This document shows, in pieces, positions 3,318-33,214 of a DNA stretch of 64,000 bases (its first letter is position 1; each line of letters begins with the position of its first letter). Source of the DNA: Thermoproteota archaeon (lineage in GTDB: Archaea; Thermoproteota; Thermoprotei; Thermoproteales; Thermocladiaceae); NCBI GenBank assembly GCA_013153275.1, contig JAADER010000062.1, positions 1 through 64,000 of the forward strand, read 5' to 3'. Below the pieces are notes generated by a model that was not told where the DNA came from, did no database searches, and saw nothing but the letters and a program-made list of their open reading frames with translations. A program made the position numbers and the translations under genes.

Positions 3318-6059
3318 ATGAGTATGAATAGACGTACACTACTAACGATACTGGTTCCGCTAGTAATAGTTATGGCATCACTAATGACTGTACCCCTAAA
3401 TGCTCAGTCAACTATGGTAACAATTAAGGGAACAGTGTACGTGTACTATAACACCACTAAGACGTATGTTCCCATAGCGAAGGTTCCTGGAGTAAACGTG
3501 AGCAAGCTTGTAATATTCTTCAAGCCTACATTAACAAGCTTCGAGATCTATAAGAACTCTACATATGTGGCTCAGGTTCCAGCTGAGAAGCCTATATCAG
3601 TATATATTGCACTTGCTGAGAATCCTCTAACAAAGAACGTTCCAGCATACTTCAACATTAGTGGAGTACTAATGCACACGTACACGTTCCTACCAACACT
3701 CTTCGGAGCTCCATCAACGGTGAACATAGTAGTTAACTACTCTGAGCTCATGAAGATCATTCCACCACCAGCAGTATTCAAGGTATCGGTCGTCAAGACA
3801 ATTCCAACAACAGTAACTGTAGGAGAGACATATGTGCTAAGTGTAAGTGTGAAGAACGTTGGTAAGGCGACTGGAACAGACAACCTGTGCCTATATATTA
3901 ACAAGACATGCGTATGTAAGAAAGTCACAGTATCACCTGGCGAGACCAAGACAGTAGACTTTGCAGTGAAGTTCAATGCTACTGGAACTTATCTACTTAA
4001 GCTCACTTCAAATGGTGCAAAGGTCTGGTCAGAGACTGTTAAGGCTATATCTAAGCCGAAGTATGCCTACAAGGTAGTCTCAGTACAAGTGCCCTCTCAG
4101 TTCATATCAGACGTGCCTGGAACAGTCACTGTAACGATAGAGAATACAGGAACAGCACCAGTAACCCTAGCAGTTAAGGCTGTAGCCCTCCTAAAGTCTC
4201 CCGTAGGCAACATAACCTCATCTACAGTATCTAAGAACGTAAGGATAGAGCCCGGAAAGACAGCAAAAGTATGTCTGAGCGTTGTATTCCACGGTGTAGG
4301 TACAGGATATGTTGACGTGTATGTGAACAAGAGCCTAGTCTACTCGAAGTCTGTTAAAGTGATCTATGTATCTGTTAAGGTAGCTTTTGCAAAGAAGAGC
4401 TACATACTGACACTTGGAGAAGAGAAGAATGTAACTCTACTCTTACTAAACGGTTCAAAGGCTGCTGGAGTCAGCGTGACGATACGCTATAATTCAAGTG
4501 TGATAAATGTAGTTGCCGTCAAAGCTGGAGACTTCAAGAGCAGGGTCAGTGGACTAGCTACATACAGTATAAACAACAAGAAGGGAATAGTAAAGATAGT
4601 GATAGCTGGATCCACTGCATGCGGAGTAAATAAGACAGTCATAGCCTACATAACGTTGAAGGCAGTATCCGTAGGAAAGACAACACTAAGAGTAAACGGA
4701 ACATGGTCAAACGTTAACGGTCAGGTATTCCCAGTAATGGGAGTACCAGCAAACGTGACAGTAACAAAGAAGGTCGCAATATTCAATGGAACAATATCAG
4801 CACCATCAACAGCATATGCTGGCGTACCATTCAACGTCAAGGTCACAGTAAAGAATATTGGTAATGCTCCAGGAAAGGCATCGGTCGAGATAAAGTACGA
4901 TAATAAGGTATGTGCTGGACCCGTAGTAACTCCAGTACTGTCACCAGGAGAGACGTGGACACACACGTTCAAGTGCACCATATCTACAACTGGAACATAC
5001 ACACTATCACTAGTAGTCAATGGCACAGTTAAGGCAACAACATCTGTCACGGTGAAGAAGGTTCCACCATACAAGGTATACATGACAGTCATGCCAAAGA
5101 TGTATGTGTACTGGGCAGGATATCCAGTAACACTGAACGTGACAGTGGTGCCAAAGGTCAAGACAAGCACTGCAATAAACATAACAGTCGTAGAGGTTAC
5201 ACCATATGAGGTCAAGGTCGTAGGCTCTCTATTTGAGCCTCTAGTAGTAGGAAAGGCATACTCAATAGTCAAGAAGATACTACTACCAACATACACGACA
5301 ACTGGAGAGATAATAGTATATGTGAACGGTGTACCTGTTAACAGGACAAGCTTCAAGACAACTGGAGTAGCCGTAGTAGTAAAGCCACGTACATACGAGC
5401 TGATATCAGTACCAGTACTACCACTATCATATGCATCAGAAAGCCAGTCACTACCAGCCCCACCACCAGGTTCAGCACCAGTAAAGCTACCAACCCTCGC
5501 ACAAGTATTCTCGCTAGTATATGATGTGAGAACAGGAAAGAAGGTCAACCCATGGTCAGCAATCGCAGTATACTACTATAATAGGGCGGCATCATCAGCA
5601 CCATTCTACGTAGCTATATCACCAACATCGACACCGGTGAGACCAGGAATGGGCCTAGTAGTGTACTCAGCATATCCACATGAGCTGGTACTGATAGTGC
5701 CAATAAACGTCACAGCAGTATCCTCAACAACACTCAAGACACTACTAATGAAGACTCTAGAACTAGCATACGTACCATCACCACTAGAGCCAGGATGGGC
5801 AATAGTAGGACCAATAGGACTAGTACCAGTAAAGCTACTGCCATCAAAGTTCCTGAACCTGACACTATACTACACAGAGTCAACAAGCAACAGCGCCTGG
5901 ACAACTGTAGAGACAGTGACAACAGGAGACTACGTATATCCAGGAAAGGGCTACTGGATATTCTGGAACCTACTGACAATACATGCACTACACCAGAACA
6001 TGGAGAGCTACCTATCACAGTACTATTCAGTCCTAGGATTCGCCAAGTCCTGCAAGTAA
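3318..6059 (+). CDS. Secreted envelope protein with CARDB-type repeats and a cohesin-like domain
   Basis: About 913 residues from the ATG at 3318. ATG codons at 3288 and 3324 are alternatives; the TATA box at 3291 favours 3318 or 3324. Residues 1-30 are a signal peptide ending near LNAQS. Three CARDB/APHP-like beta-sandwich repeats lie at about 153-243, 250-348 and 488-585, each with a VTVGE- or SPGET-like turn and a KNVG or KNIG motif. Residues about 352-485 look like a cohesin fold: a VSVTIRYNSS strand, VVAVKAGDF, then GIVKIVIAG and KTVIAYITLKA, the hallmark cohesin order. The C-terminus has the ELISVPV...LEPGW...GKGYWIFWN pattern common in prokaryotic surface proteins. It follows another envelope gene on the same strand. 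A partner bearing a dockerin is encoded at 30401-33214. The cohesin call rests on pattern reading only. Confidence 0.7.
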   Translation: MSMNRRTLLTILVPLVIVMASLMTVPLNAQSTMVTIKGTVYVYYNTTKTYVPIAKVPGVNVSKLVIFFKPTLTSFEIYKNSTYVAQVPAEKPISVYIALAENPLTKNVPAYFNISGVLMHTYTFLPTLFGAPSTVNIVVNYSELMKIIPPPAVFKVSVVKTIPTTVTVGETYVLSVSVKNVGKATGTDNLCLYINKTCVCKKVTVSPGETKTVDFAVKFNATGTYLLKLTSNGAKVWSETVKAISKPKYAYKVVSVQVPSQFISDVPGTVTVTIENTGTAPVTLAVKAVALLKSPVGNITSSTVSKNVRIEPGKTAKVCLSVVFHGVGTGYVDVYVNKSLVYSKSVKVIYVSVKVAFAKKSYILTLGEEKNVTLLLLNGSKAAGVSVTIRYNSSVINVVAVKAGDFKSRVSGLATYSINNKKGIVKIVIAGSTACGVNKTVIAYITLKAVSVGKTTLRVNGTWSNVNGQVFPVMGVPANVTVTKKVAIFNGTISAPSTAYAGVPFNVKVTVKNIGNAPGKASVEIKYDNKVCAGPVVTPVLSPGETWTHTFKCTISTTGTYTLSLVVNGTVKATTSVTVKKVPPYKVYMTVMPKMYVYWAGYPVTLNVTVVPKVKTSTAINITVVEVTPYEVKVVGSLFEPLVVGKAYSIVKKILLPTYTTTGEIIVYVNGVPVNRTSFKTTGVAVVVKPRTYELISVPVLPLSYASESQSLPAPPPGSAPVKLPTLAQVFSLVYDVRTGKKVNPWSAIAVYYYNRAASSAPFYVAISPTSTPVRPGMGLVVYSAYPHELVLIVPINVTAVSSTTLKTLLMKTLELAYVPSPLEPGWAIVGPIGLVPVKLLPSKFLNLTLYYTESTSNSAWTTVETVTTGDYVYPGKGYWIFWNLLTIHALHQNMESYLSQYYSVLGFAKSCK

Positions 6060-6135
6060 GAAATAGAAACACCTTTCTCATTCTCTCAAACCTCTCAATG
6101 TATAACATATAAATCCTCTTTCTCTCTCCTTGTAC

Positions 6136-6576
6136 ATGAGACGTAGTATCCTGCTCATGCTATCCTTTCTATTTCTAATACTTTCCCTAGCTCTCACAGC
6201 ACCAACACTAGCACAATCGCTACCACCCCCACCATCACCATCCACAGTAACAACAAATAACACAAACATATATAAGATAATTCAGACAAACAATAACATA
6301 ACAATAAACGTAACAAGCAGCAACGGAATAATAAAGAACGTAACAATAATAATACCTCACAAAACAGTGAAACAAAAGCAGACTAGAACACCACCAGCCA
6401 CTACTAGCGTCACGAAAAAGACCACAATAGTACAGCATAATGTTACGATAAACAGGGAGATAAGTGAAGAAAAGGCAGGTCACAGCTTCCTCATATTTAT
6501 AGTTCTCGCCTGCATCATAATCATAGTAGTAGCCGTAGTCGCTATAGTAGCTATACTACGTAGAGGAAAAAGGTGA
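6136..6576 (+). CDS. Small secreted protein with a C-terminal membrane anchor
   Basis: About 146 residues from the ATG at 6136; a TTG six bases upstream is an alternative. It has an N-terminal signal peptide (MRRSILLML onward, cleavage near TLAQS), a proline, threonine and asparagine rich extracellular stretch with several N-X-T sites, then a hydrophobic segment of about 25 residues near the end and a short basic tail (RRGKR). The layout is a single-pass anchored stalk. Its place directly after two envelope genes suggests it anchors or caps the surface layer, but no family is recognised. Its stop codon overlaps the C box of a sRNA at 6573. Confidence 0.65.
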   Translation: MRRSILLMLSFLFLILSLALTAPTLAQSLPPPPSPSTVTTNNTNIYKIIQTNNNITINVTSSNGIIKNVTIIIPHKTVKQKQTRTPPATTSVTKKTTIVQHNVTINREISEEKAGHSFLIFIVLACIIIIVVAVVAIVAILRRGKR

Positions 6577-6622
6577 TGTATCCTAGACCAGGCTGAAAAG
6601 TGATGAAGTAATCGGGTACTGA
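6573..6622 (+). ncRNA. Box C/D sRNA candidate
   Basis: All four boxes occur in order with standard spacing: C GTGATGT (6573-6579), guide of 13 nt, D' CTGA (6593-6596), spacer AAA, C' GTGATGA (6600-6606), guide AGTAATCGGGTA (12 nt), D CTGA (6619-6622). Flanks GAGG (6563-6566) and CCTC can pair as a terminal stem, with a second short A/T pairing inside. Such RNAs guide 2'-O-methylation of rRNA or tRNA with L7Ae, Nop5 and fibrillarin. I could not assign the targets by eye. The C box overlaps the stop codon of the upstream gene. Confidence 0.72.
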
Positions 6623-6624
6623 GT

Positions 6625-7803
6625 TTAACCTCTCTCGCTTAATGGAACATATCTGAGACCTATAGGTCCAATATAGCGCTCTAACGGTCTTATCAATCTA
6701 TTATGCTTCCAGTACTCTAACACGTGTGCAACCCATCCTACTATCCTGGATATTGCAAATATTGCAGGATTATAATCTGGAGGTATATCAAGAAGATAGA
6801 GGAGGACACCCGCATAGAGATCAACGTTTGGTCTGACCCCCTTACCTCCTAACCTTGATGTGACCTCGTTCTCGAGCTTCTCAGCTATCCTATAGACCTT
6901 CAGATATTTTCCACCCTTCTTCTCTGCTAACTTTCTCGCAACCTCTTTAAGAATAGGTACTCTAGGATCCCCACGTGTAGAGGACTTATATACCCTGTGA
7001 CCAAAACCCATTATCCTCTCTTTTCTCTCAATCTTCTCACTGACAAACTTCTCAACATTCGACTCGTCACCTATCTCAAGTATCATGTTCACAACCTCAC
7101 GGTTCGCACCACCATGTAGCGGACCTTTCAGGCTTGATAATGCTGCCACTATTGCAGATCCTAGATCAGATAGTGTTGATGCAACCGTTATTGCTGTAAA
7201 TGTAGAGTTCGCTAGACTATGGTCAGCATATATTATGAAGATCGTCTTCACGGCCTCATACTCTACAGGATCCGGCTCACGGCCCATCATCATGTAGTAG
7301 AAGTTTGCTGGATGATCAAACTCCTCTCTTGGAAGAACCACGTCGAGACCCTTGCTTATACGGTAGAAATATGCGAGCACTACAGGAAGCTTGCTTATGA
7401 GGTCTATTGCTAGGTCATAGTTATCTTTGAGAGAGCCCGTATTTATGAACTTCCTACGAGTACAATAGAAGTCTATACTGAGTCTCAGGACGTCTATAGG
7501 GTATGCATCTGATGGAAGCATCTTCAATAGGTCTATCACCGCACTATCTATGAACCTCCTGGACCTTAAGTCTCTTGAGAACTCTTCAAGCTCTACCGAG
7601 CTCGGAAGCTTGCCATATATGAGCAGGTATGCCACTTCTTCAAAAGATGCGTTCCTTACCAGGTCCTCCAGATCGTAGCCTCTGTAGTATATCTTGCCGC
7701 TGTCATTATCTATATAACATATCTCTGTCTCATTGACATAGAGACCCTCAAGTCCCCAGAAAACCTTTTTACTCTCACCATCAATATGTTGACATAGAGA
7801 CAT
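6625..7803 (-). CDS. gltA: Citrate synthase
   Basis: A 392-residue protein of the archaeal type II citrate synthase size. It condenses acetyl-CoA and oxaloacetate into citrate in the cytoplasm. Catalytic residues are visible: the histidine in GPLHGGANREV (about residue 230), the histidine in GFGHRVYK (about 269) and the aspartate in RPNVDLYAG (about 328). The ADHSLANST motif is also conserved. It is a single gene on the minus strand, converging on the envelope cluster, with a TATA-rich gap of 140 bases to the divergent thiolase gene. A 2-methylcitrate synthase activity cannot be excluded from sequence, since archaeal members are often bifunctional. Confidence 0.93.
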   Translation of the reverse strand: MSLCQHIDGESKKVFWGLEGLYVNETEICYIDNDSGKIYYRGYDLEDLVRNASFEEVAYLLIYGKLPSSVELEEFSRDLRSRRFIDSAVIDLLKMLPSDAYPIDVLRLSIDFYCTRRKFINTGSLKDNYDLAIDLISKLPVVLAYFYRISKGLDVVLPREEFDHPANFYYMMMGREPDPVEYEAVKTIFIIYADHSLANSTFTAITVASTLSDLGSAIVAALSSLKGPLHGGANREVVNMILEIGDESNVEKFVSEKIERKERIMGFGHRVYKSSTRGDPRVPILKEVARKLAEKKGGKYLKVYRIAEKLENEVTSRLGGKGVRPNVDLYAGVLLYLLDIPPDYNPAIFAISRIVGWVAHVLEYWKHNRLIRPLERYIGPIGLRYVPLSERG

Positions 7804-7943
7804 TATCTACAAGCTAGGTGTAGTGCTTATCTAAAATATAAACATTAATATCCCTCATAGATGATAACTATACTTTACGATACTTCGCTAATACTCAATT
7901 AGGAATAGTGTAGAAGACTAACCTTAAAACAAGGCAGAGAGAA

Positions 7944-8888
7944 ATGATAGTGAGAGGAAGAGACGTGAGAGCTAGATGCACCTTCTGTAACGAGGAGGCT
8001 ATATACATAGTCAAGCACCGTAAGCTCAGACTCTGTAGAGAACACTTCATAGATTATGTTAAGACGGAGGTAGAGAACACTATCTACAGGTTTGAAATGT
8101 TAAAAAACGTTAAGAAACTTCTAATAGCAGTATCCGGAGGTAAAGATAGTGTAACAATGCTACACATACTCCACCAGATCTGTAGAGAACTTGGGACAGA
8201 GATTCTCGGACTAACCATAGATACAGAAATAGGAGAGTTCTCCAGAAAACAGGTAGAGACCTCTGTTCAAGTGTTCAAGAGTCTAGGTATTCCCTATAGA
8301 GTCGAGAGGTTCTCAGATTATGGAATAGACCTACTCAGACCTGACCTTGAGAAAATTACCAGACGTCCACCATGCTCAGTATGTGGAATAGCTAAGAGAT
8401 ACATAATGAACAGGGTAGCTCTAGAAGAGAACTGTCAAGCAATCGCTACGGGACACAACATGATTGACATAGCACAGTACGCCATAGCTAACATATTGAC
8501 GGGAAGCTTAGAATACCTCACAAAACTGTTACCAAAGGTAGAGGAGGGACCTAGAATGGCTAGAAGATTGAGACCTCTCTACTTTATAGATGAGAAGGAG
8601 ACGAAGCTATATGTAGAGACAGTGAAGCTACCATATGTGGCAGATCGATGCCCACTTTCAGATTCTAGAGAGACCATGCAGGACACAGTGCGAGCACTGG
8701 TGAGAGAGCTGGAGGATAGACATCCAGGATCTATAAGATCGTTCGTCGATAAGCTTGTACGTAGGATAATACCTTCTCTTAAGGTTCCTGAGGAGAGGTA
8801 TGGGACCTGTAAGATATGTGGAATGCCCTCAAAAGGGGAGGTGTGCTCGTTCTGCAGGATACGTATGTTACTGAGAGGAGAGACATGA
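7944..8888 (+). CDS. tRNA 2-thiolation enzyme of the TtuA/Ncs6/TtcA family
   Basis: A 314-residue protein. The PP-loop SGGKDS at residues 64-69 binds ATP to adenylate a tRNA uridine before sulfur transfer. Two zinc-finger pairs flank the core: CTFC plus CREH at the N-terminus and CKIC plus CSFC at the C-terminus. PPCSVCG and the later GHNMID match the TtuA/Ncs6 branch, where such cysteines hold a 4Fe-4S cluster. TtuA thiolates m5U54 for heat stability, and Ncs6 acts on the wobble uridine; I cannot separate the two by eye. The stop overlaps the next ATG (ATGA), so the serine kinase gene is translationally coupled. Confidence 0.85.
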   Translation: MIVRGRDVRARCTFCNEEAIYIVKHRKLRLCREHFIDYVKTEVENTIYRFEMLKNVKKLLIAVSGGKDSVTMLHILHQICRELGTEILGLTIDTEIGEFSRKQVETSVQVFKSLGIPYRVERFSDYGIDLLRPDLEKITRRPPCSVCGIAKRYIMNRVALEENCQAIATGHNMIDIAQYAIANILTGSLEYLTKLLPKVEEGPRMARRLRPLYFIDEKETKLYVETVKLPYVADRCPLSDSRETMQDTVRALVRELEDRHPGSIRSFVDKLVRRIIPSLKVPEERYGTCKICGMPSKGEVCSFCRIRMLLRGET

Positions 8889-9517
8889 GAATAGAATTGA
8901 AACGCATCAGAATAAGCAAGCTCATCCCACATGAGTCGACGATAGAGGAGAGAGTTAGAGAGCTCATAGAGAGCATAAGAAGAACAGGATTACAGGAACC
9001 TATAATAGTAGACTCAGAAACATATATGATAATAGACGGACACCACAGAGTAGAAGCATGTAAGAGACTCGGAATAACGAAGATACCTGCACTACTCGTA
9101 AACTACCTCGACGATGATATAGAGCTTAGAAGATGGCTATACGTGTACAAGATGAGGAACGAGCCTATAGACAAGTATTATCAGAACAGCATGGAGATAC
9201 CTACAAGAATAGTCCAGAAAATACTCTATAACCTACGTCCTGGAAACGTCGAGACAATAATAAAGACCATAAGGTCAACAACGAAGATATATCACGACAA
9301 TGTGAACGAGATGTACTGGCTACTTCATGAGGCTATAGAGAACATACCAGAGCTTTCGAAGGTTCCTGAAGATCAGTACGATGGAACGCTCCCGGTAGTA
9401 TATACACCGATAATCTTCAAGCAGATAGTGATCTACTATGCAAAGATGGGAAAAGTATTCCCACCTAAGACAACTAGGCACATAGTCCCGTACAGCGTGA
9501 GCCTGATAAGACGCTAG
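8885..9517 (+). CDS. ParB-like free serine kinase (SerK family)
   Basis: About 210 residues from the ATG at 8885, which overlaps the previous stop. An upstream in-frame start (8816) would lie deep in the preceding gene and is unlikely. The N-terminal 90 residues form a ParB/sulfiredoxin-like domain with IDGHHRVEACKRLG. The all-helical rest and total length match archaeal SerK, a kinase that phosphorylates free L-serine to O-phosphoserine, rather than chromosomal ParB, which has a helix-turn-helix. O-phosphoserine feeds cysteine synthesis; a cysteine synthase homologue is at 25690 and SerA at 40047. A ParB-like nuclease or regulator role remains possible. Confidence 0.65.
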   Translation: MRIELKRIRISKLIPHESTIEERVRELIESIRRTGLQEPIIVDSETYMIIDGHHRVEACKRLGITKIPALLVNYLDDDIELRRWLYVYKMRNEPIDKYYQNSMEIPTRIVQKILYNLRPGNVETIIKTIRSTTKIYHDNVNEMYWLLHEAIENIPELSKVPEDQYDGTLPVVYTPIIFKQIVIYYAKMGKVFPPKTTRHIVPYSVSLIRR

Positions 9518-11289
9518 CAGGTTCTAGGTATGTTCCAGGGTATCGAGCTGTAGGATGGTACAGACATCAGAGCCCAGTAGAAGCCGTAGACTACGAGAAG
9601 AGCAAGCACTAGAGCTACTAGAGTCCTAGAGATCCTGCTCTCGAACATATGTAGAAGACTGAACAGGAACACGCCCACAAATATATGAGGAAAAACGTTA
9701 ATTATGACTCTGAGAGGCTGAGATAGAAATGGAAACAAGGACACGAACAACAGCGTGTCAAGGTAGTTAAGCCTCTCCTTCACATGTGTAAGATAGAGAA
9801 GAGCGCTTATACCGGCAAGATAGAAGAAGAGTACTGAGACAGAGCCCCATACAAACACGTTAAATTGAAACCACATGAAGGACGGTAGCTGAGACACGTG
9901 ACCTGTAGTAACTACACCTATAACCGGCATCGCAACTGACCTCAGAGCCTTAAGATGGTAGAGCAGCCTTGCAGCACCGCACACGGTCGATATCAGTATG
10001 AAGGTCCAGAGCTTTCTCATGGAGGAACCTCTCTTTCGGAGATGTAGAATTATTGCATATATCACGAGCCCAGCAGTAAGCTGAACCCATACCCATGGAT
10101 GTATAAAGAGAACTAGTATAGATATTATACAGGAAAGCACAAAACGAGGAGACCTGACATCTCTAGCAGAGAACAGTAGAATCAGACATATCATGAGAAG
10201 AGATAGAGCAAAGAGATTAGCATGAAAACCACCATAGAGAAACGTTATGAAGCTTATAGATAATGGACATACGAAGGTTGCAAATGCTGCAATGAGATCA
10301 TTCTTAAATATAGCCTTCGTAAAGAAGTATGTAGTGATAGTAAAGAGTATCAGAAGAGGAACAATATGGTACATCGATACTGCCCATATTGGTACCCCAG
10401 CCAGATGTATAAGGTAGAGCAATGTGAGATATATTGGTCTAAGACCCATGTCGGTAACGTATGCATATGCTATACCATGCCTCTCTATCGTCACTAGCCA
10501 CCTATAGTAATAGTATGTGTCCACAGATATGGGGACCCCACTAGGATTTACGAGAGGCGTCAGCGGAAGAACGGGTAGCAGTATAGAGAGAGCAATGCCT
10601 AGATATGTCAGAATCTTGCAGAGACCCCTCCTGTGAGAGCCAGGTTCTACAGAAAGGATGTCTCCATTGTGTCTTGATGTGACTATCCTCATAATTGACA
10701 GAAGGAGGAAGGCGAAGGCTAGGAAAATTGAAAGATCGTTCACAGCTACAGGAACCGCAGCAAGCCAGATCATTCCAGAGGCCGCGAAAAGATACCCTAA
10801 AATGAGATCGAGAAGAACAACGATAGCGAATATACTGAAGAACCTATATAAAGAATCAATAACACCTTTCGATAATTCTCTAAATATTGTATAACCATAG
10901 AGAATAATCAACACTACAATCACAAATTGCTGAACAAAATTAACAACAGGTACGAATAAGCTCGGAAGATCAACGATAAGGCTCAAAATAACGTATATCA
11001 AGCTCATAGATATTCTCCTATCTCGAAACTCTACAAATCCTAAGATAGCAAGACAGACAAGAGCGAGGCCAATGAGTACTCTCGAGTCTATATAACAGCT
11101 GAAGCTTTTTCCCGATAATAGGTAGTATGTTATGTCTAAGTTAAAATGTCTATATATTATTGATACAATATATATAACTCTCTTATATAATACATATGAA
11201 ACTCCGAAGAGCGACACCGAGAATAGTATCAATGATGTAACTATCACTATCGATGCTAGTACAGCTTTAGTAATTGCTTCTTTTTTCAC
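9514..11289 (-). CDS. Polytopic membrane protein, possible GT-C glycosyltransferase
   Basis: A 591-residue protein made mostly of hydrophobic helices, perhaps 13 or more. Between membrane segments is a loop with SVDTYYYYRW and MGLRPIYLTLLY, resembling the acidic external loop of GT-C type glycosyltransferases and oligosaccharyltransferase-like enzymes that use dolichol-linked sugars. No clear WWDYG motif is visible, so the activity is only a suggestion. Its 3' end overlaps the convergent serine kinase gene by four bases, and its start overlaps the end of the upstream THUMP gene by 23 bases, so it is probably co-transcribed with that gene. Confidence 0.55.
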   Translation of the reverse strand: MKKEAITKAVLASIVIVTSLILFSVSLFGVSYVLYKRVIYIVSIIYRHFNLDITYYLLSGKSFSCYIDSRVLIGLALVCLAILGFVEFRDRRISMSLIYVILSLIVDLPSLFVPVVNFVQQFVIVVLIILYGYTIFRELSKGVIDSLYRFFSIFAIVVLLDLILGYLFAASGMIWLAAVPVAVNDLSIFLAFAFLLLSIMRIVTSRHNGDILSVEPGSHRRGLCKILTYLGIALSILLPVLPLTPLVNPSGVPISVDTYYYYRWLVTIERHGIAYAYVTDMGLRPIYLTLLYLIHLAGVPIWAVSMYHIVPLLILFTITTYFFTKAIFKNDLIAAFATFVCPLSISFITFLYGGFHANLFALSLLMICLILLFSARDVRSPRFVLSCIISILVLFIHPWVWVQLTAGLVIYAIILHLRKRGSSMRKLWTFILISTVCGAARLLYHLKALRSVAMPVIGVVTTGHVSQLPSFMWFQFNVFVWGSVSVLFFYLAGISALLYLTHVKERLNYLDTLLFVSLFPFLSQPLRVIINVFPHIFVGVFLFSLLHMFESRISRTLVALVLALLVVYGFYWALMSVPSYSSIPWNIPRTC

Positions 11290-12400: not shown

Positions 12401-12470
12401 GAGGCTCTATTAAACTGAGATGCGGTGATGTATTTCTCTTTATTGTACGTTTATTCGCATAAACGTTGTA

Positions 12471-13286
12471 CTAATAGGATGAGAAGAGCATAGATATCAG
12501 ATTGATCACGGAGATGCATAGTACTATTCCTCCAACTATCATAAGTATTCCTCCAATGGTTGCTATCTGGTAGAGTAGACCTCCTATCATGGACGCGGTA
12601 GACGTCATGTAGTATCCTAGTATTATCACGAATATTGCACAAGTTATGAACCCTATCACCTTGAGCACCCTAGATACGACACTTGCAACATCGTTCTCGC
12701 CAAACAGTATCTCTATGAGGTTTCCCACAGATGCTATCAGGACTCCGACGAAGAGTATTGTCAATGCTCCTCCGGTAACTAGTGATAGACACGATGCTAT
12801 TATAGCCAGCACGGTCCCTGTAGTGGAGCTAGCATCGTTAATGAGGATGTTAGCAGCTATCGGATACATTATTGCTCCAGCTATGAGAGCTAGCACCGTA
12901 GTTGTGGAGGTGTTAACCATGAACATGTCTATTATGTATGTCATTATTGATGGAGTTGGAAGCCCGATAAGATATATTATTGCGAGAAATATTATTATTA
13001 CCGAGAACATGGTAACAGTCTTAACGACAGTCTCCTCAGGAAGGAGACCGCTCCTCCTGTACTCATTAGAGACGTCGACTATTAGAAGGCCGAAGAAGGC
13101 CATAACTATTAGATAAGCAATGGTGAGAACGTCTCCTAGGCTCACGTGAAGTCTGATGATGTCTAGCAGAGTTGAGAATACTGGAGGTATTGAGAACAGT
13201 AGGAATCCAAGACCGACGAGCGTGCCTGCAATGCAGCCTAGCTCCTTCTCTCTGATTATTCTGTACACGTATTCGTAACAAGACAA
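12471..13286 (-). CDS. Integral membrane protein of unknown function
   Basis: A 271-residue protein with about seven or eight hydrophobic helices and short loops rich in S and T. The N-terminal 15 residues are charged and likely cytoplasmic. There are no transporter, protease or redox motifs that I recognise. It is encoded alone, divergent from ribosomal protein L6 with only 39 bases between the two starts. They therefore share a promoter region containing an AAATATTTAATAA element. Codon use is like its neighbours, with no sign of transfer. Confidence 0.6.
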   Translation of the reverse strand: MSCYEYVYRIIREKELGCIAGTLVGLGFLLFSIPPVFSTLLDIIRLHVSLGDVLTIAYLIVMAFFGLLIVDVSNEYRRSGLLPEETVVKTVTMFSVIIIFLAIIYLIGLPTPSIMTYIIDMFMVNTSTTTVLALIAGAIMYPIAANILINDASSTTGTVLAIIASCLSLVTGGALTILFVGVLIASVGNLIEILFGENDVASVVSRVLKVIGFITCAIFVIILGYYMTSTASMIGGLLYQIATIGGILMIVGGIVLCISVINLISMLFSSY

Positions 13287-24017: not shown

Positions 24018-24028
24018 TTTTAAATTTT
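24018..24028. promoter_or_regulatory. Bidirectional TATA element between a C/D sRNA and pheS
   Basis: TTTTAAATTTT is self-complementary in its core. Leftward it predicts a transcript start near 23997, four bases before the sRNA C box. Rightward it predicts one near 24049, which would exclude a TTG start at 24033 and favour the GTG at 24060 for pheS. Confidence 0.55.
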
Positions 24029-24059
24029 TGTCTTGTCGTCCTTTTCTTCTCGGTGGTTT

Positions 24060-25640: not shown

Positions 25641-25689
25641 GATAACACTTAAACTACTCTACACAACCTATAGAGGGGAGATCAATATT

Positions 25690-26619
25690 GTGTCGAGAGA
25701 GGAGAACCCACAACAGGACAATGGAAACCTGGAGATATACGAGAGCGTGCTCGAGCTAGCTAAGAGACACAGACCAACACCACTAGTGAGACTACGAACA
25801 TTTGGAGATGTCTGGGCAAAACTAGAGTTCTACAATCCTCTAAGTAGAAGCATCAAGGACAGAGTAGCATTATACATGATAGAGCATGTGAGAGGAAGAT
25901 GCAGAAGAGTAATTGACGCCTCATCGGGAAATTACGGTATTGCACTTGCAGTGCTCGGAAAGCTGTACGGAATCAACGTGACAGTGCTGCTTCCACGTAA
26001 GGTTGAGAGATATGTTAAGACGATACTTAAGATACTTGGAGCAGAATGTATAGAGACAGATATTGAGATGAATAATGACGACATGATAAGACTATGTAGA
26101 GAGGTAGCAGATAGATATGAGGCATGTTTCATAGACCAGTTCGAGAACACACTGAACCCAGAGGCTCACTATCTCTCTACAGGAAGAGAACTCGTTAAGC
26201 AACTTAAAGCTCTATCAAAAGCTCCTGACGTGCTTATTGCTGCTGTTGGAACTAGTGGACATATATGTGGTATAGGTAGGGCGCTTCGCGAGGAGTTTCC
26301 AAATGTTAAGATAGTAGGTGTAGCATGTAGAGAGAGCGATCATATACCTGGAATGAAGCCACTATCTGCAAGACCTAGATGGATCGATGCCGTCGACGAG
26401 ATTGTTGAGCTAGGTATAAGAGATGCTGTACGAGGCGTCGTGAAGCTTGCTAGGAGCGAGGGTCTGTTGGTTGGTCTGAGCAGTGGTGCAGTGATCTCCG
26501 CTCTTGAGAAGATTATTGATAGGGTGGGAAGAGATGCTACATACGTTGTGGTATTTCCTGACGATGTCTTCAAGTATGTTGATACTATTGATAGACTGCT
26601 GAGCGAGGTATATCTATGA
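25690..26619 (+). CDS. Cysteine synthase family PLP enzyme (possible O-phosphoserine sulfhydrylase)
   Basis: A 309-residue fold-type II PLP enzyme. NPLSRSIKDRVA holds the PLP lysine, SSGNYGIALA is the substrate loop, AVGTSGHICGIGRAL is the phosphate cup and GLSSGAV binds the ring nitrogen. Archaeal members, known best from Aeropyrum, use O-phosphoserine instead of O-acetylserine. A SerK-like serine kinase (8885) and SerA (40047) in the window make that substrate plausible here. Start is GTG preceded by a purine-rich GAGGGGAG. A cystathionine beta-synthase or threonine dehydratase role is less likely because of the conserved sulfhydrylase loops. Confidence 0.85.
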   Translation: MSREENPQQDNGNLEIYESVLELAKRHRPTPLVRLRTFGDVWAKLEFYNPLSRSIKDRVALYMIEHVRGRCRRVIDASSGNYGIALAVLGKLYGINVTVLLPRKVERYVKTILKILGAECIETDIEMNNDDMIRLCREVADRYEACFIDQFENTLNPEAHYLSTGRELVKQLKALSKAPDVLIAAVGTSGHICGIGRALREEFPNVKIVGVACRESDHIPGMKPLSARPRWIDAVDEIVELGIRDAVRGVVKLARSEGLLVGLSSGAVISALEKIIDRVGRDATYVVVFPDDVFKYVDTIDRLLSEVYL

Positions 26620-26704
26620 GAGAGTTTTCCGAAAGTTTTGGACCTCTCTATAAGTAATCTTTTGCGATACTTTAAAAAGTAAGTTTACGCTAAGTATACG
26701 TAGA

Positions 26705-26944
26705 ATGTTTAGAGTATACATTAACCATATTAAGGGAAGAGTACTAATAAGCGGGAGAAGGACAGACCTCGATCTCTCAAAACAGGGGTGGAAGATAATA
26801 TATAAGGCAGACACATGGAAGAAAGCCTACAATTATGCTAGAAAGATAGCACTAAAATATGACTACGTGCTAGAGTGGTATCTTGAGGAGATGATAACGT
26901 TCTCCGAAGAGAAAGTCTCAACAAAGCTCCTTAGCCTTAACTAG
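26705..26944 (+). CDS. Small basic hypothetical protein
   Basis: A 79-residue basic protein, two strands followed by two helices (WKKAYNYARKIALKYDY). An ACTTTAAAAAGT element centred about 30 bases upstream supports expression. It overlaps the convergent winged-helix gene by 27 bases. No family is recognised; the size and charge would suit a nucleic-acid or ribosome-associated protein. Confidence 0.5.
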   Translation: MFRVYINHIKGRVLISGRRTDLDLSKQGWKIIYKADTWKKAYNYARKIALKYDYVLEWYLEEMITFSEEKVSTKLLSLN

Positions 26945-27838
26945 ACCCAGAAGCGTGGGAAGCACGACAACTCTACCATCAGGAAGATACCGAAGCTCCA
27001 CCAAGCCCATTCTCTCAAGCTTGAGAACACAGGAGTCAACAACGCTCTTATCAACACCAAGCTGATGTGCAACGCTCTCACGTAAGGCATTGAGAGACAT
27101 GAACCCAAGCTCGGAAAGAGACGATAATATCTCTCTAGAGACATCATCCAGCTTAGTCACGCTGAAAGAGATAGATATAGGAGAGGAGCAGACAAGTAGA
27201 TCAGTAGGAGTACATCTGACTACTATATCGTTCCTTATCTTGACTATACCATACTTATCTATACGTGGAGGTACATATATGTATGCCTCATCGAAAAACT
27301 CGAGCCTCGAAGCTCTAAGAGAGAACACATATAGCTCCATTCTACGAAACATCAGTAACATATCGATAACGTTGTCAACACTGGTTAAGTAGATAAGTAC
27401 GGGCCTATCTATATTATGCTGATAGAAGTATAATAATGCTGATAATGTTAAGAAAGTGCAGAAAGGATCTGTGGGCCAGGTACGTACGTAGCTAAGGTCT
27501 TCCTGATATCTTCTCTGTGCCGTTATATCTCTATAAAGATCTACAAGATAGTTCAAGTTAACATCTCTAAAGTTATGATTTCCTATTCTATTGAAAAAAT
27601 CTTTAAGAGTCTGTGATTCTGCTAACGACTCTCTAATTATAGAGTACTCCTCTCGTTCTATTTTAAATAGCTTCAGCATTAATGTAAAAACGATATGTTT
27701 TACATATGTATTTTCTATTCTAATCTTCTCGTATACTTCAAAACCACCTTCAAATGGCGATATTATGATACCTCTCTCTTTTCTAACTTTGTTATAGATT
27801 ACGTCCAGCGTCTTCAGACCTGTCACTAGCTTCAGCAT
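26918..27838 (-). CDS. Winged-helix protein divergent from a Cas4-like gene
   Basis: A 306-residue protein. The last 85 residues form a winged helix (SREILSSLSELGFMSLNALR and LERMGLVELRYLPDGR). The first 220 residues have alternating strands and helices, including IIISPFEGGFEV and RPVLIYLTSVDNVIDML, which could be a Rossmann-like ligand domain, but CARF identity is not demonstrable by eye. The start is 73 bases from the divergent Cas4-like gene, so the protein may control that promoter. Related architecture to Csa3 (ligand domain then HTH) is suggestive only. Confidence 0.6.
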   Translation of the reverse strand: MLKLVTGLKTLDVIYNKVRKERGIIISPFEGGFEVYEKIRIENTYVKHIVFTLMLKLFKIEREEYSIIRESLAESQTLKDFFNRIGNHNFRDVNLNYLVDLYRDITAQRRYQEDLSYVRTWPTDPFCTFLTLSALLYFYQHNIDRPVLIYLTSVDNVIDMLLMFRRMELYVFSLRASRLEFFDEAYIYVPPRIDKYGIVKIRNDIVVRCTPTDLLVCSSPISISFSVTKLDDVSREILSSLSELGFMSLNALRESVAHQLGVDKSVVDSCVLKLERMGLVELRYLPDGRVVVLPTLLGLVKAKELC

Positions 27839-27910
27839 GTCTATAGAGACGTTAGTAGGAGTAGAAAGAGTTTATGTTTAAAAATACTCTGCCACGAGTC
27901 TAGTCAGGTA

Positions 27911-28549
27911 ATGATAGCTCACGAGATATTGAGCAAACTTGCTAAATACTACGTTGATAAGTACTTTAGCTGGCTATTTCAGGGACCTAGAGAGAACCAG
28001 TTTGCTGTGTATGAGGTTCTAGAGTGTCGAAGTAAGGTTATGTTCACTAGAGCTCTCCCATACACTATAATAAATACCATATTATCACCATCCTCAATAA
28101 TAGGTATGTTACTGCACGAAGGTTTTGGAACAGTATTCTCTGAAGAGTGTGCTGGATACTGTAAAATATATTCGAGAGAGATAGAGGTTGACGGCATGAG
28201 ATACACTATCAATGGCTGGCCAGATTACTATGATGGTAGAAAGATAATAGAGCTCAAGTACACTGGTCATCCTGTTAAGGAGCCAGAGCAGAGGCATGTT
28301 CAACAGGTAAGAATGTACATGTGGCTTACAGGTGCCAAGGTGGGATATCTGCTCTACGTTACTCCACGCAAGATGTATGAGTTTGAGATAACTGATCCCA
28401 TGACTGATGCTGAGGTGGTAGAGCTTCTTAGAAGCTGGACATCACCGAGAGACCCGTCGGAGTGTTCTCAATGTGTTTTCAGGAGTGTGTGCCCATACTC
28501 GGTTGAGAAGTCTAGGGAGCATTCTACTCAAGACCGAGAGTCTCGGTGA
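27911..28549 (+). CDS. Cas4-like PD-(D/E)XK nuclease
   Basis: A 212-residue protein. GWPDYYDGRKIIELKYT is the D...ExK active site of RecB-type nucleases (D about residue 101, ELK about 112-114). The C-terminus has a cysteine cluster CSQCVFRSVC, and an early cysteine group (C38 and CAGYC) could complete a 4Fe-4S site as in Cas4. Cas4 trims prespacers during CRISPR adaptation, but no cas1 or cas2 is near, so this may be a solo Cas4 with another repair role. A GTTTAAAAATACT element lies about 30-40 bases upstream. Its end overlaps the convergent MBL gene by 26 bases. Confidence 0.78.
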   Translation: MIAHEILSKLAKYYVDKYFSWLFQGPRENQFAVYEVLECRSKVMFTRALPYTIINTILSPSSIIGMLLHEGFGTVFSEECAGYCKIYSREIEVDGMRYTINGWPDYYDGRKIIELKYTGHPVKEPEQRHVQQVRMYMWLTGAKVGYLLYVTPRKMYEFEITDPMTDAEVVELLRSWTSPRDPSECSQCVFRSVCPYSVEKSREHSTQDRESR

Positions 28550-29255
28550 TTAAGGACTCGACCTCTGTAGCTATTATTGATCTCTGCTCACCAAATTTGA
28601 AGGGTTCTCCATGTCCTGGAAGGACCAGTGTACTATCTGTGAAAGTATTTAGAAGCCTCCTTATTGATCTAATCATTCTTGAGGGATTTGAATGCGGAAG
28701 ATCTATTCTGCCTATACCCCCGTTAAGTATGACGTCCCCTGTGAAAGCTAAGTCTAGCTCTGGTGAGTATAGCACAGAGCTTCCTAGAGTATGTCCGGGA
28801 GAGTGTATCAATAAGAAGCTTACGTCTCCAATATTTAGACGTGCATTATCTTCAAGCAACATGTCTGGACTATGTCTTCGGGATCCAAATAGCTCGGGAG
28901 CATAATCGTAGAGACCTAATGTCACTCTTATCAGGTCATGTTCCGTATAGTCTTCTAGCAGGTAGGCATCAGCTCTATGTATCATTATTATTATCGATTT
29001 GTTTAGATCTTTGAAATCCATATTAGCACATGAGTGATCTAGGTGACCATGTGTGTTGAATATGTACTTGTTCTCGCAGGATCTGACGTATCTATCATAT
29101 ATGTACTTCACCATGTATTTTCTAGTGATGTCGAATCCTGGGTCTACTATGAGTGCATCTAGTCCTGATATTACTACGTACGTGTTTGTCCTATAGTGGT
29201 TAGATACTGATCTATATATGGTTATTTCTTTCTCTCTTAGAATTTCCTCTATCAT
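28524..29255 (-). CDS. MBL-fold metal-dependent hydrolase
   Basis: A 243-residue metallo-beta-lactamase-fold protein of the glyoxalase II-like branch. The metal ligands are visible in order: THGHLDHS, HSPGHTLGS, FTGDV and LPGHGE. The substrate could be a thioester or another ester. It lies four bases downstream of nmd3 on the same strand, so the two are co-transcribed. It ends overlapping the convergent Cas4-like gene. Confidence 0.83.
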   Translation of the reverse strand: MIEEILREKEITIYRSVSNHYRTNTYVVISGLDALIVDPGFDITRKYMVKYIYDRYVRSCENKYIFNTHGHLDHSCANMDFKDLNKSIIIMIHRADAYLLEDYTEHDLIRVTLGLYDYAPELFGSRRHSPDMLLEDNARLNIGDVSFLLIHSPGHTLGSSVLYSPELDLAFTGDVILNGGIGRIDLPHSNPSRMIRSIRRLLNTFTDSTLVLPGHGEPFKFGEQRSIIATEVESLITETLGLE

Positions 29256-29259
29256 TGTC

Positions 29260-30306
29260 TCACTCCATTATAATTATCTCTTCATCTATAGGTATGATCT
29301 TGCTGTCAAGAATTACTACCTTTACTAACGATCCTTCAGGAATATCTCTTGAACCTAGATCAACGATCTTGTCGCCGTACATGACTAATGTCTTATCACC
29401 TTTCTTGATAACCTTCCCATATCCTGTCTCTGTACTTATCTTTCTTATGTTTCTTCTCAGTATCTCTCCTATGCTCATCCTCACGTTCTCACGTGTCTCA
29501 AGATCCTTCAAGTATATGCTACTTCTCGAGACCGCTAGAACATAGTACCTTCCTCTCCCATCTAGTGTCACTATGTCTCCCTTCTTGAGATTTAGCACAT
29601 GTATGCTTATTGTGAGACGAGTGATCGGTTTACCGCTTCTATCCATGCCTATGAGCTTATGCGACTCAATCATCTTACTTGGGAAGGATCTATGTATTGC
29701 CGATGCTATGGCCTTAGCTATCGTGTTGTTAGTCAGCTTTATATCGAAACCTGATCCAGACTCTTCTATGTCTATTACTGCTCCTCTCTGAACTTCCTCG
29801 CTCTTTGCAAGAACCTGACTTATTATGTGACGAAGAACGAGAAGATCCTCCCTACTATGCCTATCTCCGACATACCTCACCTGGATTAAAGCACGCTCCT
29901 TGCCCATTGCAATGCTTCTACATGTAGGACAGATGTCGGGAACAAGCTTCACATATACCTTATACGTCTCACAGTAGTCCTCTCTCATGTTCTCGCTTGC
30001 TCTGCCACAGATCTTGACCTCGACCTCCTGTTCGCCCTCCTCTAAAGATATCTCTCCAATCTCTATCTTACTGATGAGTCCTCTAGTCTTAACGAGGTCG
30101 AGTATATGTCTCTTGATGACGTCTAGTCTTCTTGTCCATCTGCCTTTATAGAGAACCGAGCCGCATACGACACATACTCTGAATGTCAATCTATCAATTC
30201 TAGGAAGATCTCTGACGAGAGGGTTACTTCTACGGTAACATTCCTCGCAGAGACCGTCAACTAGGCGATCAACTTCTCTACCGCATACTGGGCAGATTCT
30301 CCTCAT
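29260..30306 (-). CDS. NMD3 family ribosome biogenesis protein
   Basis: A 348-residue protein. The N-terminus carries paired zinc sites (CPVCGREVD, CEECY, CVVCGS and later CPTCRSI) as in NMD3. The middle has the eIF5A-like and SH3-like domains that bind the large subunit at the tRNA sites. In eukaryotes Nmd3 is an export adaptor; in archaea it likely guards large-subunit maturation. The gene leads a two-gene operon with the MBL hydrolase. Its promoter region faces that of the dockerin protein gene across 94 bases. Confidence 0.85.
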   Translation of the reverse strand: MRRICPVCGREVDRLVDGLCEECYRRSNPLVRDLPRIDRLTFRVCVVCGSVLYKGRWTRRLDVIKRHILDLVKTRGLISKIEIGEISLEEGEQEVEVKICGRASENMREDYCETYKVYVKLVPDICPTCRSIAMGKERALIQVRYVGDRHSREDLLVLRHIISQVLAKSEEVQRGAVIDIEESGSGFDIKLTNNTIAKAIASAIHRSFPSKMIESHKLIGMDRSGKPITRLTISIHVLNLKKGDIVTLDGRGRYYVLAVSRSSIYLKDLETRENVRMSIGEILRRNIRKISTETGYGKVIKKGDKTLVMYGDKIVDLGSRDIPEGSLVKVVILDSKIIPIDEEIIIME

Positions 30307-30351
30307 CTATGATAGACATAGGGTAGGCTCTTCATAACCTTTTTTGCATTA

Positions 30352-30381
30352 CTATTCCTTACGGAATAGCTTATTAATCCT
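30352..30381 (+). promoter_or_regulatory. Palindrome followed by TATA box of the dockerin gene
   Basis: CTATTCC (30352-30358), gap TTAC, GGAATAG (30363-30369): seven perfect base pairs. It abuts CTTATTAAT, a TATA box centred about 26 bases before the ATG at 30401, giving a leaderless start. The palindrome sits where BRE and TFB bind, so a regulator bound here would block or alter initiation. Confidence 0.55.
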
Positions 30382-30400
30382 ACAAACATGATAGCACTTT

Positions 30401-33214
30401 ATGAGTACTAGGTTCTATATAGCGCTTCTAGTAGCTATAACGTTAGCGATAACAGCCACAGCATACGGTCTCGCAACCATACCGAAGTTCATTTACCATA
30501 CCTCCTACATGACGTACAAGGGAAAGAAGATCCTAGTCATGTATCCTGAAAAAGCCCTAAAGAAGCTACATGAGCTACAGCCAGGAAGTGTGACGATCAT
30601 ACCCTTCGTAGAAGAGACAATTGTAACAGAGAATACAAAATTCACGCTATACGCAGTAGCTCTCAGATACGGCGAGGGGCCTATAAGCAACTACCCACTC
30701 GAGTTCAAGGTATACTGCAACAACAAGCTAATAGTAGATAGGTACGTCACGACAGACAAGTATGGACTAGCAAAGCTCACCATAACGACACCTAGCAAAG
30801 CAGGAGAATGCTGGGTAGATGTATGCCATAACGGGCAATGTGTTGGTGAGTGGTGGTGGATGTCCTACTTCGCAGTAACAAACGCACTATCCATACCACC
30901 ATACTTCAAGGAGACCAAAGATAACATTAGAAGAACATATATAGCACTAATAAAACCTGTAACAGGAACGCCATATAACGGCATCCTTCCCATAACCGTA
31001 TCAGGAAAGAGAGAGACCTTATATGTTAAGAATGGAGTTACGAAAATAAGCCTAGATCTTCACAGACTTGGAAGCTTCAGCATATCTTACCAAGGCCTAG
31101 ACCTCCTACATTATGACGTATATCCAAGCCTAGGAACGACAATGCCCACCTTTGATATCTGGAACTTCTATGGAAGAACCATAAAGCTCATGATACTACT
31201 CTTCAACGAGAACTTTACCGCACTATCGGGCGTAGTAACATTAACCGTTACGGTGGACTTTATTAATGGTTCACTTCGTACGATTAGCAACGAAAACGTC
31301 ACTGTGAAGAATGGCATAGGCTTTGCAACGATTACGATACCTAGTGAGTTAATGAAGAACATAACAGATCTATTCGTGTCAGTATACTATGCTGGTCTGT
31401 GGCTAGGTTCGTTCTCCGTATACCTATTCTCACCACCAAAACCCTATCGTCCACCACCTCCAACTCCATATATATCATTAAACGATTATTGCTCTTCTAA
31501 TGGAGTATGTACCATAGATGCATATCTCTATAACGGTACCAAGCCAATGCCGAACCAGACAATATGGATCTACACGAGCTGGGGATTCGAAACCGCACTA
31601 AAGACGAACAAGAGTGGAGAAGTATTTGTTAAGGTGAGAGCACCATTAAGATACTTCATAGGTAACTACTTCATAGTTGTAGCATCCAGATGGACATACA
31701 CGACAGACTCTATATTAAGATGGCATAACGTCAACTACTACACCAACGTTACAAATAATAAGATCTACATAGATCTAAATACAACTGAACCCACAGTATT
31801 AAGTTATGAGAAGATCGCGCCACCATGGCTAGATACCGCCAAGGTAATCTATACGGAGATCCTAAACAGGAATACAACCATAGAGCTTCCAAAATATAAC
31901 AACTACGGCATATACTGCGTAGAGCTATATTTCAGCCAGTGGTCTGCTTATCTACCATACTGCTATGCGGTCCTTCCTCTGAAACTCATATATGAAACTC
32001 CAAGCATAGAATACACGACATCCGGTCCCGTACTAACGTTCCGCGTTCTAAATACAGAAAACAGAACCGTACCTGGAGCTAAGGTATGCGTCTTAGCCTA
32101 CTACACTGCAGATATACCATACAAGGGCAAGTACGTAGAGGCCTCCCTACAGATGATGGCTAAGTGCGGTGTCACGAACAATAATGGTGAGGTAACGATA
32201 AGGCTACCGAAGCTAAACTTCTCTAACGCAAGAAATGTAGTATTGAACTATTATGCTGTAGCATCAGCTAACGGCTATATATCTAACTTCACGTCCGCGA
32301 CCGTCCAGATAATAAATGTCAGTCTACCAGACTTGACGGTGGAGAACCTCACAATTGTACCGAGATATCCTGTAAATGGAGACCTTGTGAAGGCCATGTT
32401 CGAGATATGTAATATAGGTACCAAGAATGCGAGCGACGTAGAGTATCAGGTTCTTCTCAATAATGAGGTAATTAATGAGAGCACTATAAGCCTAGTAGCA
32501 GCTGGAGAGTGCATACCTGTAACAGTGTCTCTTGGAAAATTAAGCTCTGGATACTACACTGTGCAGGTCATAGTTAATCCATATAACACTATAAGGGAGG
32601 TCACTACAGAGAACAATGTTGCATGGCAGGCAGTACAAGTATTCTCTCCAAGCAGCTGCATCATAAGGATACTACCATCATCAATATTTGCAAACATAAC
32701 GATGCCTCTGAAAGTAGAGCTCTATAACTGTCCCTGGGTAAAGTCAATAAACATAACGTTGAGCTTGAACGGTGTACCTGTCAAAGTGAAGAACGTAACC
32801 GCCGGTCCAGGAGTCAGATGCATGAATGGCTCACTATCCAGCGTCATAAAGAACAACGTCATAGAGATAGAGGTGAAAGGAAGAAAGAGCTGTGGAAACT
32901 TCACAACAGTGATAGCATATGTATACGTTAACGCATCAAAGACCGGAACACTAACAGTAAAGTACGCGGGATCGCTCATGGACGCTGAAGGAAGAATATT
33001 TAAGACAAAGGTTCAGACGAGCAACATAACTGTTAAGAAAGTCCTAGAATGCGACTTCAACTTAAATGGTCGTCTTGATGTTGGTGATGTTGTTCTGCTA
33101 CTACGTATACTTGTAGGAAAGTACCACAGCATAATACCATGCGACCTCAATCACAACGGTAGATTAGACATCGGAGACGCAGTACTGCTCCTTAGAAAGC
33201 TCGCAAGCATCTGA
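30401..33214 (+). CDS. Secreted multidomain protein with CARDB, cohesin-like and dockerin modules
   Basis: A 937-residue secreted protein with an N-terminal signal helix (about residues 5-26). The first 640 residues are beta-sandwich repeats with sequons and cysteine pairs. A CARDB-like domain follows (about 643-755, PDLTVENLTI to TTENNVAWQAV). Residues about 757-880 resemble a cohesin fold (INITLSLNGVPVKVKNV, FTTVIAYVYVNASKTG). The C-terminus (about 880-937) is a dockerin: two copies of a calcium loop, DFNLNGRLDVGD and DLNHNGRLDIGD, each followed by VVLLLR or AVLLLR helices. Dockerins bind cohesins through calcium-stabilised loops. The candidate partner is encoded at 3318. It has its own promoter with a palindrome. 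Confidence 0.78.
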   Translation: MSTRFYIALLVAITLAITATAYGLATIPKFIYHTSYMTYKGKKILVMYPEKALKKLHELQPGSVTIIPFVEETIVTENTKFTLYAVALRYGEGPISNYPLEFKVYCNNKLIVDRYVTTDKYGLAKLTITTPSKAGECWVDVCHNGQCVGEWWWMSYFAVTNALSIPPYFKETKDNIRRTYIALIKPVTGTPYNGILPITVSGKRETLYVKNGVTKISLDLHRLGSFSISYQGLDLLHYDVYPSLGTTMPTFDIWNFYGRTIKLMILLFNENFTALSGVVTLTVTVDFINGSLRTISNENVTVKNGIGFATITIPSELMKNITDLFVSVYYAGLWLGSFSVYLFSPPKPYRPPPPTPYISLNDYCSSNGVCTIDAYLYNGTKPMPNQTIWIYTSWGFETALKTNKSGEVFVKVRAPLRYFIGNYFIVVASRWTYTTDSILRWHNVNYYTNVTNNKIYIDLNTTEPTVLSYEKIAPPWLDTAKVIYTEILNRNTTIELPKYNNYGIYCVELYFSQWSAYLPYCYAVLPLKLIYETPSIEYTTSGPVLTFRVLNTENRTVPGAKVCVLAYYTADIPYKGKYVEASLQMMAKCGVTNNNGEVTIRLPKLNFSNARNVVLNYYAVASANGYISNFTSATVQIINVSLPDLTVENLTIVPRYPVNGDLVKAMFEICNIGTKNASDVEYQVLLNNEVINESTISLVAAGECIPVTVSLGKLSSGYYTVQVIVNPYNTIREVTTENNVAWQAVQVFSPSSCIIRILPSSIFANITMPLKVELYNCPWVKSINITLSLNGVPVKVKNVTAGPGVRCMNGSLSSVIKNNVIEIEVKGRKSCGNFTTVIAYVYVNASKTGTLTVKYAGSLMDAEGRIFKTKVQTSNITVKKVLECDFNLNGRLDVGDVVLLLRILVGKYHSIIPCDLNHNGRLDIGDAVLLLRKLASI

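What the first reader, a model, noticed from the sequence alone, without database searches (positions are those of the whole stretch)
3318..33214. Cohesin-like and dockerin modules in crenarchaeal envelope proteins
A secreted protein at 30401 ends in a two-loop dockerin (DFNLNGRLDVGD and DLNHNGRLDIGD), and proteins at 3318 and 30401 carry cohesin-like sandwiches (about 4371-4772 and about 32669-33040). Cohesin-dockerin pairs are known in Archaeoglobus and clostridial cellulosomes, but their use with S-layer-like proteins in a crenarchaeon would be unusual. They could attach a surface protein to the envelope through calcium.
Basis: partly seen in the sequence, partly recalled or inferred. Interest (0 to 1): 0.75.

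Follow-up and report, generated by a model that had tools for sequence, protein, structure and literature searches.

The report
Cohesin–dockerin surface assembly in a crenarchaeon
A little-known heat-loving archaeon carries a small family of secreted proteins, several of them predicted protein-cutting enzymes, that share the calcium-dependent plug-and-socket modules known from bacterial cellulose-digesting machines, probably so that they can be clipped onto the cell surface.

Summary
ORF 3288-6059 has a cohesin at 4371-4769: Pfam PF00963 is over its cut-off, the model has pLDDT 96, and its closest solved structure is the Archaeoglobus fulgidus cohesin 2xdh. ORF 30401-33214 ends in a two-loop dockerin at 33053-33202, preceded by a more divergent cohesin at 32648-33043. 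Profiles built only from other species find all three, and shuffled controls give nothing.

It is larger than described. The window's genome has three complete dockerins and part of a fourth. The two complete ones outside the window sit on predicted HExxH metallopeptidases. Sister species have up to about seven dockerin genes each: peptidases, beta-propeller-like proteins, large Ig-like proteins and cohesin-dockerin adaptors. Among 81 genomes of the class, only this genus has both modules.

Best model: the 3288 protein is the surface receptor. It is the only cohesin protein found here without a dockerin, and a small membrane-anchored gene follows it in three species. Dockerin-tagged secreted proteins dock on it with calcium, and cohesin-dockerin proteins extend the chain. 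Binding, calcium dependence and surface location are inferred. Archaeal cohesin-dockerin systems are known (Archaeoglobus, ANME), so this is a variant of a known kind.

The parts
3288..6059 (+). Cohesin-bearing secreted protein (likely start 3318): signal peptide, CARDB/Ig-like modules, one cohesin, CARDB, conserved C-terminal domain; proposed surface receptor
   Evidence: ORF; CARDB 52 bits; hydrophobic N-terminus, no other membrane segment
4371..4769 (+). Cohesin module 1
   Evidence: PF00963 35.0 bits over cut-off; genus profile 146 bits; leave-genome-out profile 127 bits; pLDDT 96.3, PDB best match cohesin 2xdh TM 0.80
5013..6056 (+). C-terminal region of the cohesin protein, 70-74% identical in two sister species where the middle is only about 31-37%; candidate cell-attachment part
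6130..6576 (+). Small secreted protein with C-terminal membrane helix (residues about 120-137) directly downstream of the cohesin gene; candidate membrane anchor
   Evidence: hydropathy 3.74; same gene order in sister contigs L187 and L186, 51% identity over 88 aa
30401..33214 (+). Secreted Ig-like/CARDB surface protein ending in cohesin-dockerin (P0001)
   Evidence: ORF; CARDB 51 bits; one full-length relative, 62% identical, in a sister species
32327..32623 (+). CARDB module of P0001
   Evidence: PF07705 at residues 643-741
32648..33043 (+). Cohesin module 2 (divergent), almost directly fused to the dockerin
   Evidence: 57.5 bits to a cohesin profile without this genome; pLDDT 93.6, PDB best match 2xdh
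33050..33211 (+). Dockerin: two calcium loops (33053-33088, 33143-33178), each preceded by an invariant Cys
   Evidence: 104 bits with leave-genome-out profile; alignment A1 of 13 dockerins; two helices modelled

Best explanation
A non-cellulosomal cohesin-dockerin assembly on the surface of a Thermoproteales-like crenarchaeon. The 3288 protein is the receptor: it is secreted, carries one cohesin and no dockerin, and is probably held at the membrane with the small membrane protein at 6130. Secreted proteins ending in a dockerin (P0001, two metallopeptidases elsewhere in the genome, and in sister species propeller-like proteins) bind cohesins through calcium-loaded dockerins. Proteins with both modules (P0001, some of the peptidases, dedicated coh-coh-doc proteins) act as adaptors that lengthen the assembly. 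SHOWN: module identity and predicted fold, secretion-type N-termini, extreme C-terminal position of the dockerins, co-occurrence within one genus, conserved cohesin/membrane-protein gene pair. INFERRED: binding, calcium dependence, location, adaptor role, peptidase activity.
For: Cohesin and dockerin identity. In the PDB sequence search all 7 matches of the cohesin profile are cohesins, and the matches of the dockerin profile are dockerins or dockerin-bearing enzymes. In the window's family all matches of the genus cohesin profile lie in genus g1; in the class of 81 genomes no other genus has both modules. Dockerin proteins have hydrophobic N-termini and no C-terminal membrane helix; the 6130 protein has one. 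The 3288/6130 gene pair next to citrate synthase is kept in three species. In G004 a peptidase-coh-coh-doc gene lies directly beside a cohesin-CARDB gene with no dockerin. Peptidase HExxH and downstream E are invariant in 7 sequences. The A. fulgidus pair binds well enough to be used to attach proteins to E. coli surfaces (PMC9705933) and in a hyperthermostable designer cellulosome (PMC6394049).
Against: No binding or complex prediction was possible. The 3288 and P0001 cohesins are only about 22% identical, so one may not bind the same dockerin. G003 of the same genus has no dockerin and only two weak cohesin-like domains. All genomes of the genus are incomplete MAGs (69-89%).
Confidence: 0.7

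Rival explanations
1. The cohesin fused to the dockerin (32648-33043) is not a receptor but a structural partner of its own dockerin, like the X module of type II X-dockerin dyads; only the 3288-type cohesins bind dockerins.
For: The linker to the dockerin is only a few residues and both are modelled with high confidence in one piece. In the peptidases of G000:C31, G001:C32 and G002:C10 the corresponding domain is degenerate (16.7 bits, none and 6.6 bits) while the dockerin stays intact, as expected if it has lost a binding role.
Against: Several dockerin proteins lack it altogether (peptidases L036 and L149, propeller-like L038, L041), so the dockerin does not need it. In G001:C17 and G002:C19 the fused cohesins score about as high as the free-standing type.
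Confidence: 0.3
2. Self-polymerisation: the cohesin of one cohesin-dockerin protein binds the dockerin of the next copy, giving fibres or a sheath rather than cargo docking on a receptor.
For: Cohesin and dockerin sit on the same chain in P0001, G002:C19 (two genes), G001:C17 and others.
Against: It does not explain dockerin-only enzymes and propeller-like proteins, nor cohesin-only proteins (3288; L032 10082-12670).
Confidence: 0.2
3. The dockerin-like tails are only calcium-stabilised EF-hand ends that thermostabilise the C-terminus and bind no cohesin.
For: Weak Pfam score for the window copy and cross-matches to EF-hand models.
Against: Conservation is concentrated in this tail across otherwise unrelated proteins, and genuine cohesins occur in the same genomes. 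Relatives with dockerin but no cohesin are rare in the class.
Confidence: 0.08

Closest known systems
Archaeoglobus fulgidus non-cellulosomal cohesin-dockerin pair (PDB 2xdh; Voronov-Goldman 2011, cited in PMC9705933)
   Same: Hyperthermophilic archaeon; best structural match to both window cohesins; not linked to cellulose
   Different: Host of another phylum; 14-16% identity; no invariant two-Cys dockerin family or peptidase cargo is known to me for it (memory)
ANME cohesin/dockerin proteins (PMC9012536, PMC5244752)
   Same: Archaeal, many dockerin proteins, scaffoldin-like cohesin-dockerin proteins, proposed surface attachment
   Different: Those papers report ABC-transporter binding proteins and S-layer domains as dockerin partners; here predicted metallopeptidases and propeller-like proteins; different phylum
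Clostridial cellulosome (type I/II cohesin-dockerin)
   Same: Same two module families, same loop pattern D-x-N-x-(D/N)-G-x5-D, enzymes tagged by dockerins, an anchoring cohesin protein
   Different: No protein with more than two cohesins, no glycoside hydrolase or cellulose-binding module seen on the dockerin proteins, no SLH anchor
Clostridium perfringens secreted-enzyme cohesin-dockerin complex (2jnk/2ozn dockerin, 2jh2 cohesin)
   Same: Best PDB sequence match of the dockerin profile, sharing the NGKIDIGD stretch; second-best fold match of cohesin 2; not a cellulosome
   Different: Bacterial glycosidases, not archaeal peptidases

Membership tests
Cohesin (PF00963) | Profile match over curated cut-off | tested here: met
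   Cohesin 1: 35.0 bits vs 24.1. Cohesin 2 alone: no Pfam hit, only a genus-profile match
Cohesin (PF00963) | Jelly-roll beta sandwich of cohesin type | tested here: met
   pLDDT 96.3 and 93.6; top PDB matches are cohesins
Cohesin (PF00963) | Binds a dockerin | not testable with these tools
   No complex prediction or assay available
Dockerin type I (PF00404) | Two 12-residue calcium loops, each followed by a helix | tested here: met
   Both loops intact, helices 147-157 and 177-189 of the modelled fragment
Dockerin type I (PF00404) | Profile match over curated cut-off | tested here: inconclusive
   Window copy 17.8 bits, under 22.9; homologous copies in the same genome and genus 23.0-29.9 bits, over it
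Dockerin type I (PF00404) | Calcium-dependent folding and binding | not testable with these tools
   Loop residues present; no assay
Cellulosome | Multi-cohesin scaffoldin with carbohydrate-binding module | tested here: not met
   At most two cohesins per protein in the loci examined; no CBM match in the proteins scanned
Cellulosome | Dockerin-bearing glycoside hydrolases | tested here: not met
   No glycoside hydrolase domain in the dockerin proteins scanned
S-layer protein | Match to an S-layer family or known anchor domain | tested here: not met
   No such Pfam or NCBIfam match for the 35, 3288 or 30401 proteins; does not exclude an unrecognised S-layer protein

The most novel reading that the evidence does not exclude
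This genus has built a cell-surface proteolytic complex, a protein-degrading counterpart of the cellulosome, in which a family of metallopeptidases and propeller-like proteins is plugged into a membrane-held cohesin receptor by a disulphide-locked hyperthermophilic dockerin that spreads between genes as an almost identical DNA cassette.
Probability: 0.3. Interest if true: 0.75.

Novelty: new variant of a known kind. Interest (0 to 1): 0.52.

Why it matters
What non-cellulosomal cohesins and dockerins do in archaea is an open question (PMC5244752, PMC9012536). A compact set with one candidate receptor and a few dockerin proteins in a 1.4 Mb genome makes it directly testable. It would extend a working cohesin-dockerin assembly to true crenarchaea and to peptidase cargo, and would supply heat-stable, Cys-containing binding pairs.

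Tried and rejected
RNA structure in the dockerin DNA: window copy z 0.04, sister copy z 2.3, so no structure. Homology between the C-termini of the 35 and 3288 proteins: only 23.9 bits over 21 residues, not convincing. Homologues of P0001 or the 3288 protein in other genera that might show what anchor replaces the module: none found. PDB relatives of the peptidase domain by sequence: none. Dockerin on plasmids: none. Contamination by a euryarchaeon or bacterium: rejected for the window and C60, because the modules sit beside genes such as NMD3 and citrate synthase (window) and RtcA (C60); the citrate synthase and RtcA neighbourhoods are kept in sister species. Peer et al. 2009, the survey of non-cellulosomal modules, was not held, so its statement on crenarchaea could not be checked.

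Full report
OBSERVATION. The protein at 30401-33214 ends in DFNLNGRLDVGDVVLLLRILVGKYHSIIPCDLNHNGRLDIGDAVLLLRKLASI, two canonical dockerin loops each followed by a helix. The protein at 3288-6059 (likely start 3318) carries a cohesin at 4371-4769: Pfam PF00963, 35.0 bits against a cut-off of 24.1 on the isolated domain, though the whole-protein scan missed it. The second sandwich, 32648-33043, has no Pfam hit. It scores 57.5 bits (E 5e-17) to a cohesin profile built from sister species only; the same kind of profile for dockerins gives 104 bits for the window tail. Twenty shuffles of each of 760 ORFs gave no hit to either.

FOLD. Foldseek against the PDB puts the Archaeoglobus fulgidus cohesin 2xdh first for both; all 50 listed matches of cohesin 1, and most of those of cohesin 2, are cohesins. 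By sequence, all seven PDB matches of the cohesin profile are cohesins, and the matches of the dockerin profile are dockerins or enzymes that carry them.

THE WIDER SYSTEM. The window lies in a 1.39 Mb, 71-contig genome (88.6% complete). It holds three complete dockerins and one fragment at the start of contig C59, and five matches to the genus cohesin profile. The two complete dockerins outside the window end predicted metallopeptidases (L026 15454-17535; L027 6902-9403). Their HExxH motif and a Glu 26 residues downstream are invariant in seven relatives, and Pfam's putative zinc peptidase DUF5700 is the only recurrent weak match. In the sister genomes the dockerin proteins are further peptidases, beta-propeller-like proteins (weak Kelch/WD40 matches), an orthologue of P0001 and adaptor-like proteins with CARDB, one or two cohesins and a dockerin. 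By readable N-termini I count about seven dockerin genes each in G001 and G002, and one in G004.

The window gene pair, cohesin protein followed by a small protein with a C-terminal membrane helix beside citrate synthase, is found in three species. The C-terminal 350 residues of the cohesin protein are 70-74% identical between species while the middle is 31-37%. I read this as a fixed attachment part and a variable display part; that is inference. Between RtcA and CobO, the window's genome has peptidase-coh-coh-doc, whereas G002 has coh-coh-doc plus CARDB-coh-doc, so cargo modules appear to be exchanged at a fixed chromosomal site.

DISTRIBUTION. In the 81 held genomes of the class, PF00963 exceeds its cut-off in four (three of this genus, plus G334) and PF00404 in five (three of this genus, plus G039 and G185). 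No genome outside the genus has both. Across a sample of 400 genomes of the phylum cohesins are not rare (43 over cut-off, almost all in other classes). The unusual point is therefore true crenarchaea (this class), not the phylum. The closest named relatives are Thermoproteota MAGs JAADCU and JAADDN (L_MaxBin.038 and .140). The next dockerin, from an Archaeoglobaceae MAG, scores 52 bits to the genus profile, against 98-118 bits for complete copies in the genus.

A GENUS FEATURE. Every dockerin in the alignment has a Cys immediately before each calcium loop. None of the outside relatives listed keeps both at these places; a few have one. A disulphide clamp across the two loops is likely but not shown.

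MECHANISM. Most likely, dockerin-tagged secreted proteins dock on the membrane-held 3288 cohesin through calcium, and cohesin-dockerin proteins add further sockets. The A. fulgidus pair shows that an archaeal hyperthermophile pair can bind and be used for surface attachment (PMC9705933, PMC6394049). The main uncertainty is whether the cohesin fused to the dockerin is a receptor or an X-module-like support. No complex could be modelled here.

COMPARISON AND VERDICT. The modules are members of the cohesin and dockerin families by fold and sequence; the system is not a cellulosome (no glycoside hydrolases, no large scaffoldin, no CBM). Archaeal non-cellulosomal sets, including adaptor-like proteins, are known in ANME (PMC9012536). 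What is new here is the crenarchaeal class, the predicted peptidase cargo, the two-Cys dockerin and the near-identical dockerin DNA. No held paper joins dockerin with Thermoproteales or Thermoproteota, but most subscription papers are not held.

Noticed in passing
L033, L147, L148, L149, L152, L153 (contig ends in G001, G002): At least six sister-genome contigs start or end inside the dockerin. The DNA there is identical for exactly 91 nt between several different genes, synonymous sites included, which looks like recent copying or gene conversion of the tag that broke the assembly. One 91-nt match is between G001 and G002, whose bins carry names from one binning effort, so misbinning is possible.
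   Followed up: partly
first dockerin repeat, e.g. L027 9242-9313, L038 1434-1505; window 33050-33121 weaker: In this copied dockerin type the first repeat has 17-20 of 24 codons ending in T, against a maximum of 15 in 8,427 windows of 24 codons over window genes; the second repeat is A/C-ending. The two repeats encode nearly the same peptide but share 0-3 codons where about 5-6 are expected. Cause unknown.
   Followed up: partly
window 35-3175: Large secreted Ser/Thr-rich protein upstream of the cohesin gene, no family match, only a partial relative in one sister species; possible S-layer or sheath protein.
   Followed up: partly
L040 10030-10317: Isolated cohesin in a 96-aa open frame in G004, with in-frame stops in the extended match; probably a decayed cohesin gene.
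   Followed up: no
L042 2016-2618: Sister-genome 201-aa open frame with two separated dockerin-like loops embedded in a helical protein, not at the C-terminus; different from the tag type.
   Followed up: no
L189, L190: G003 has two long, near-duplicate proteins beginning with a weak cohesin-like domain and no dockerin found in the genome; may be contamination or a diverged relative.
   Followed up: no
L015, L019 (G039): A genome of another family of the same order has C-terminal dockerin-like pairs (DLNGNGRLDYDDVVRLFRHF) without any detected cohesin.
   Followed up: no
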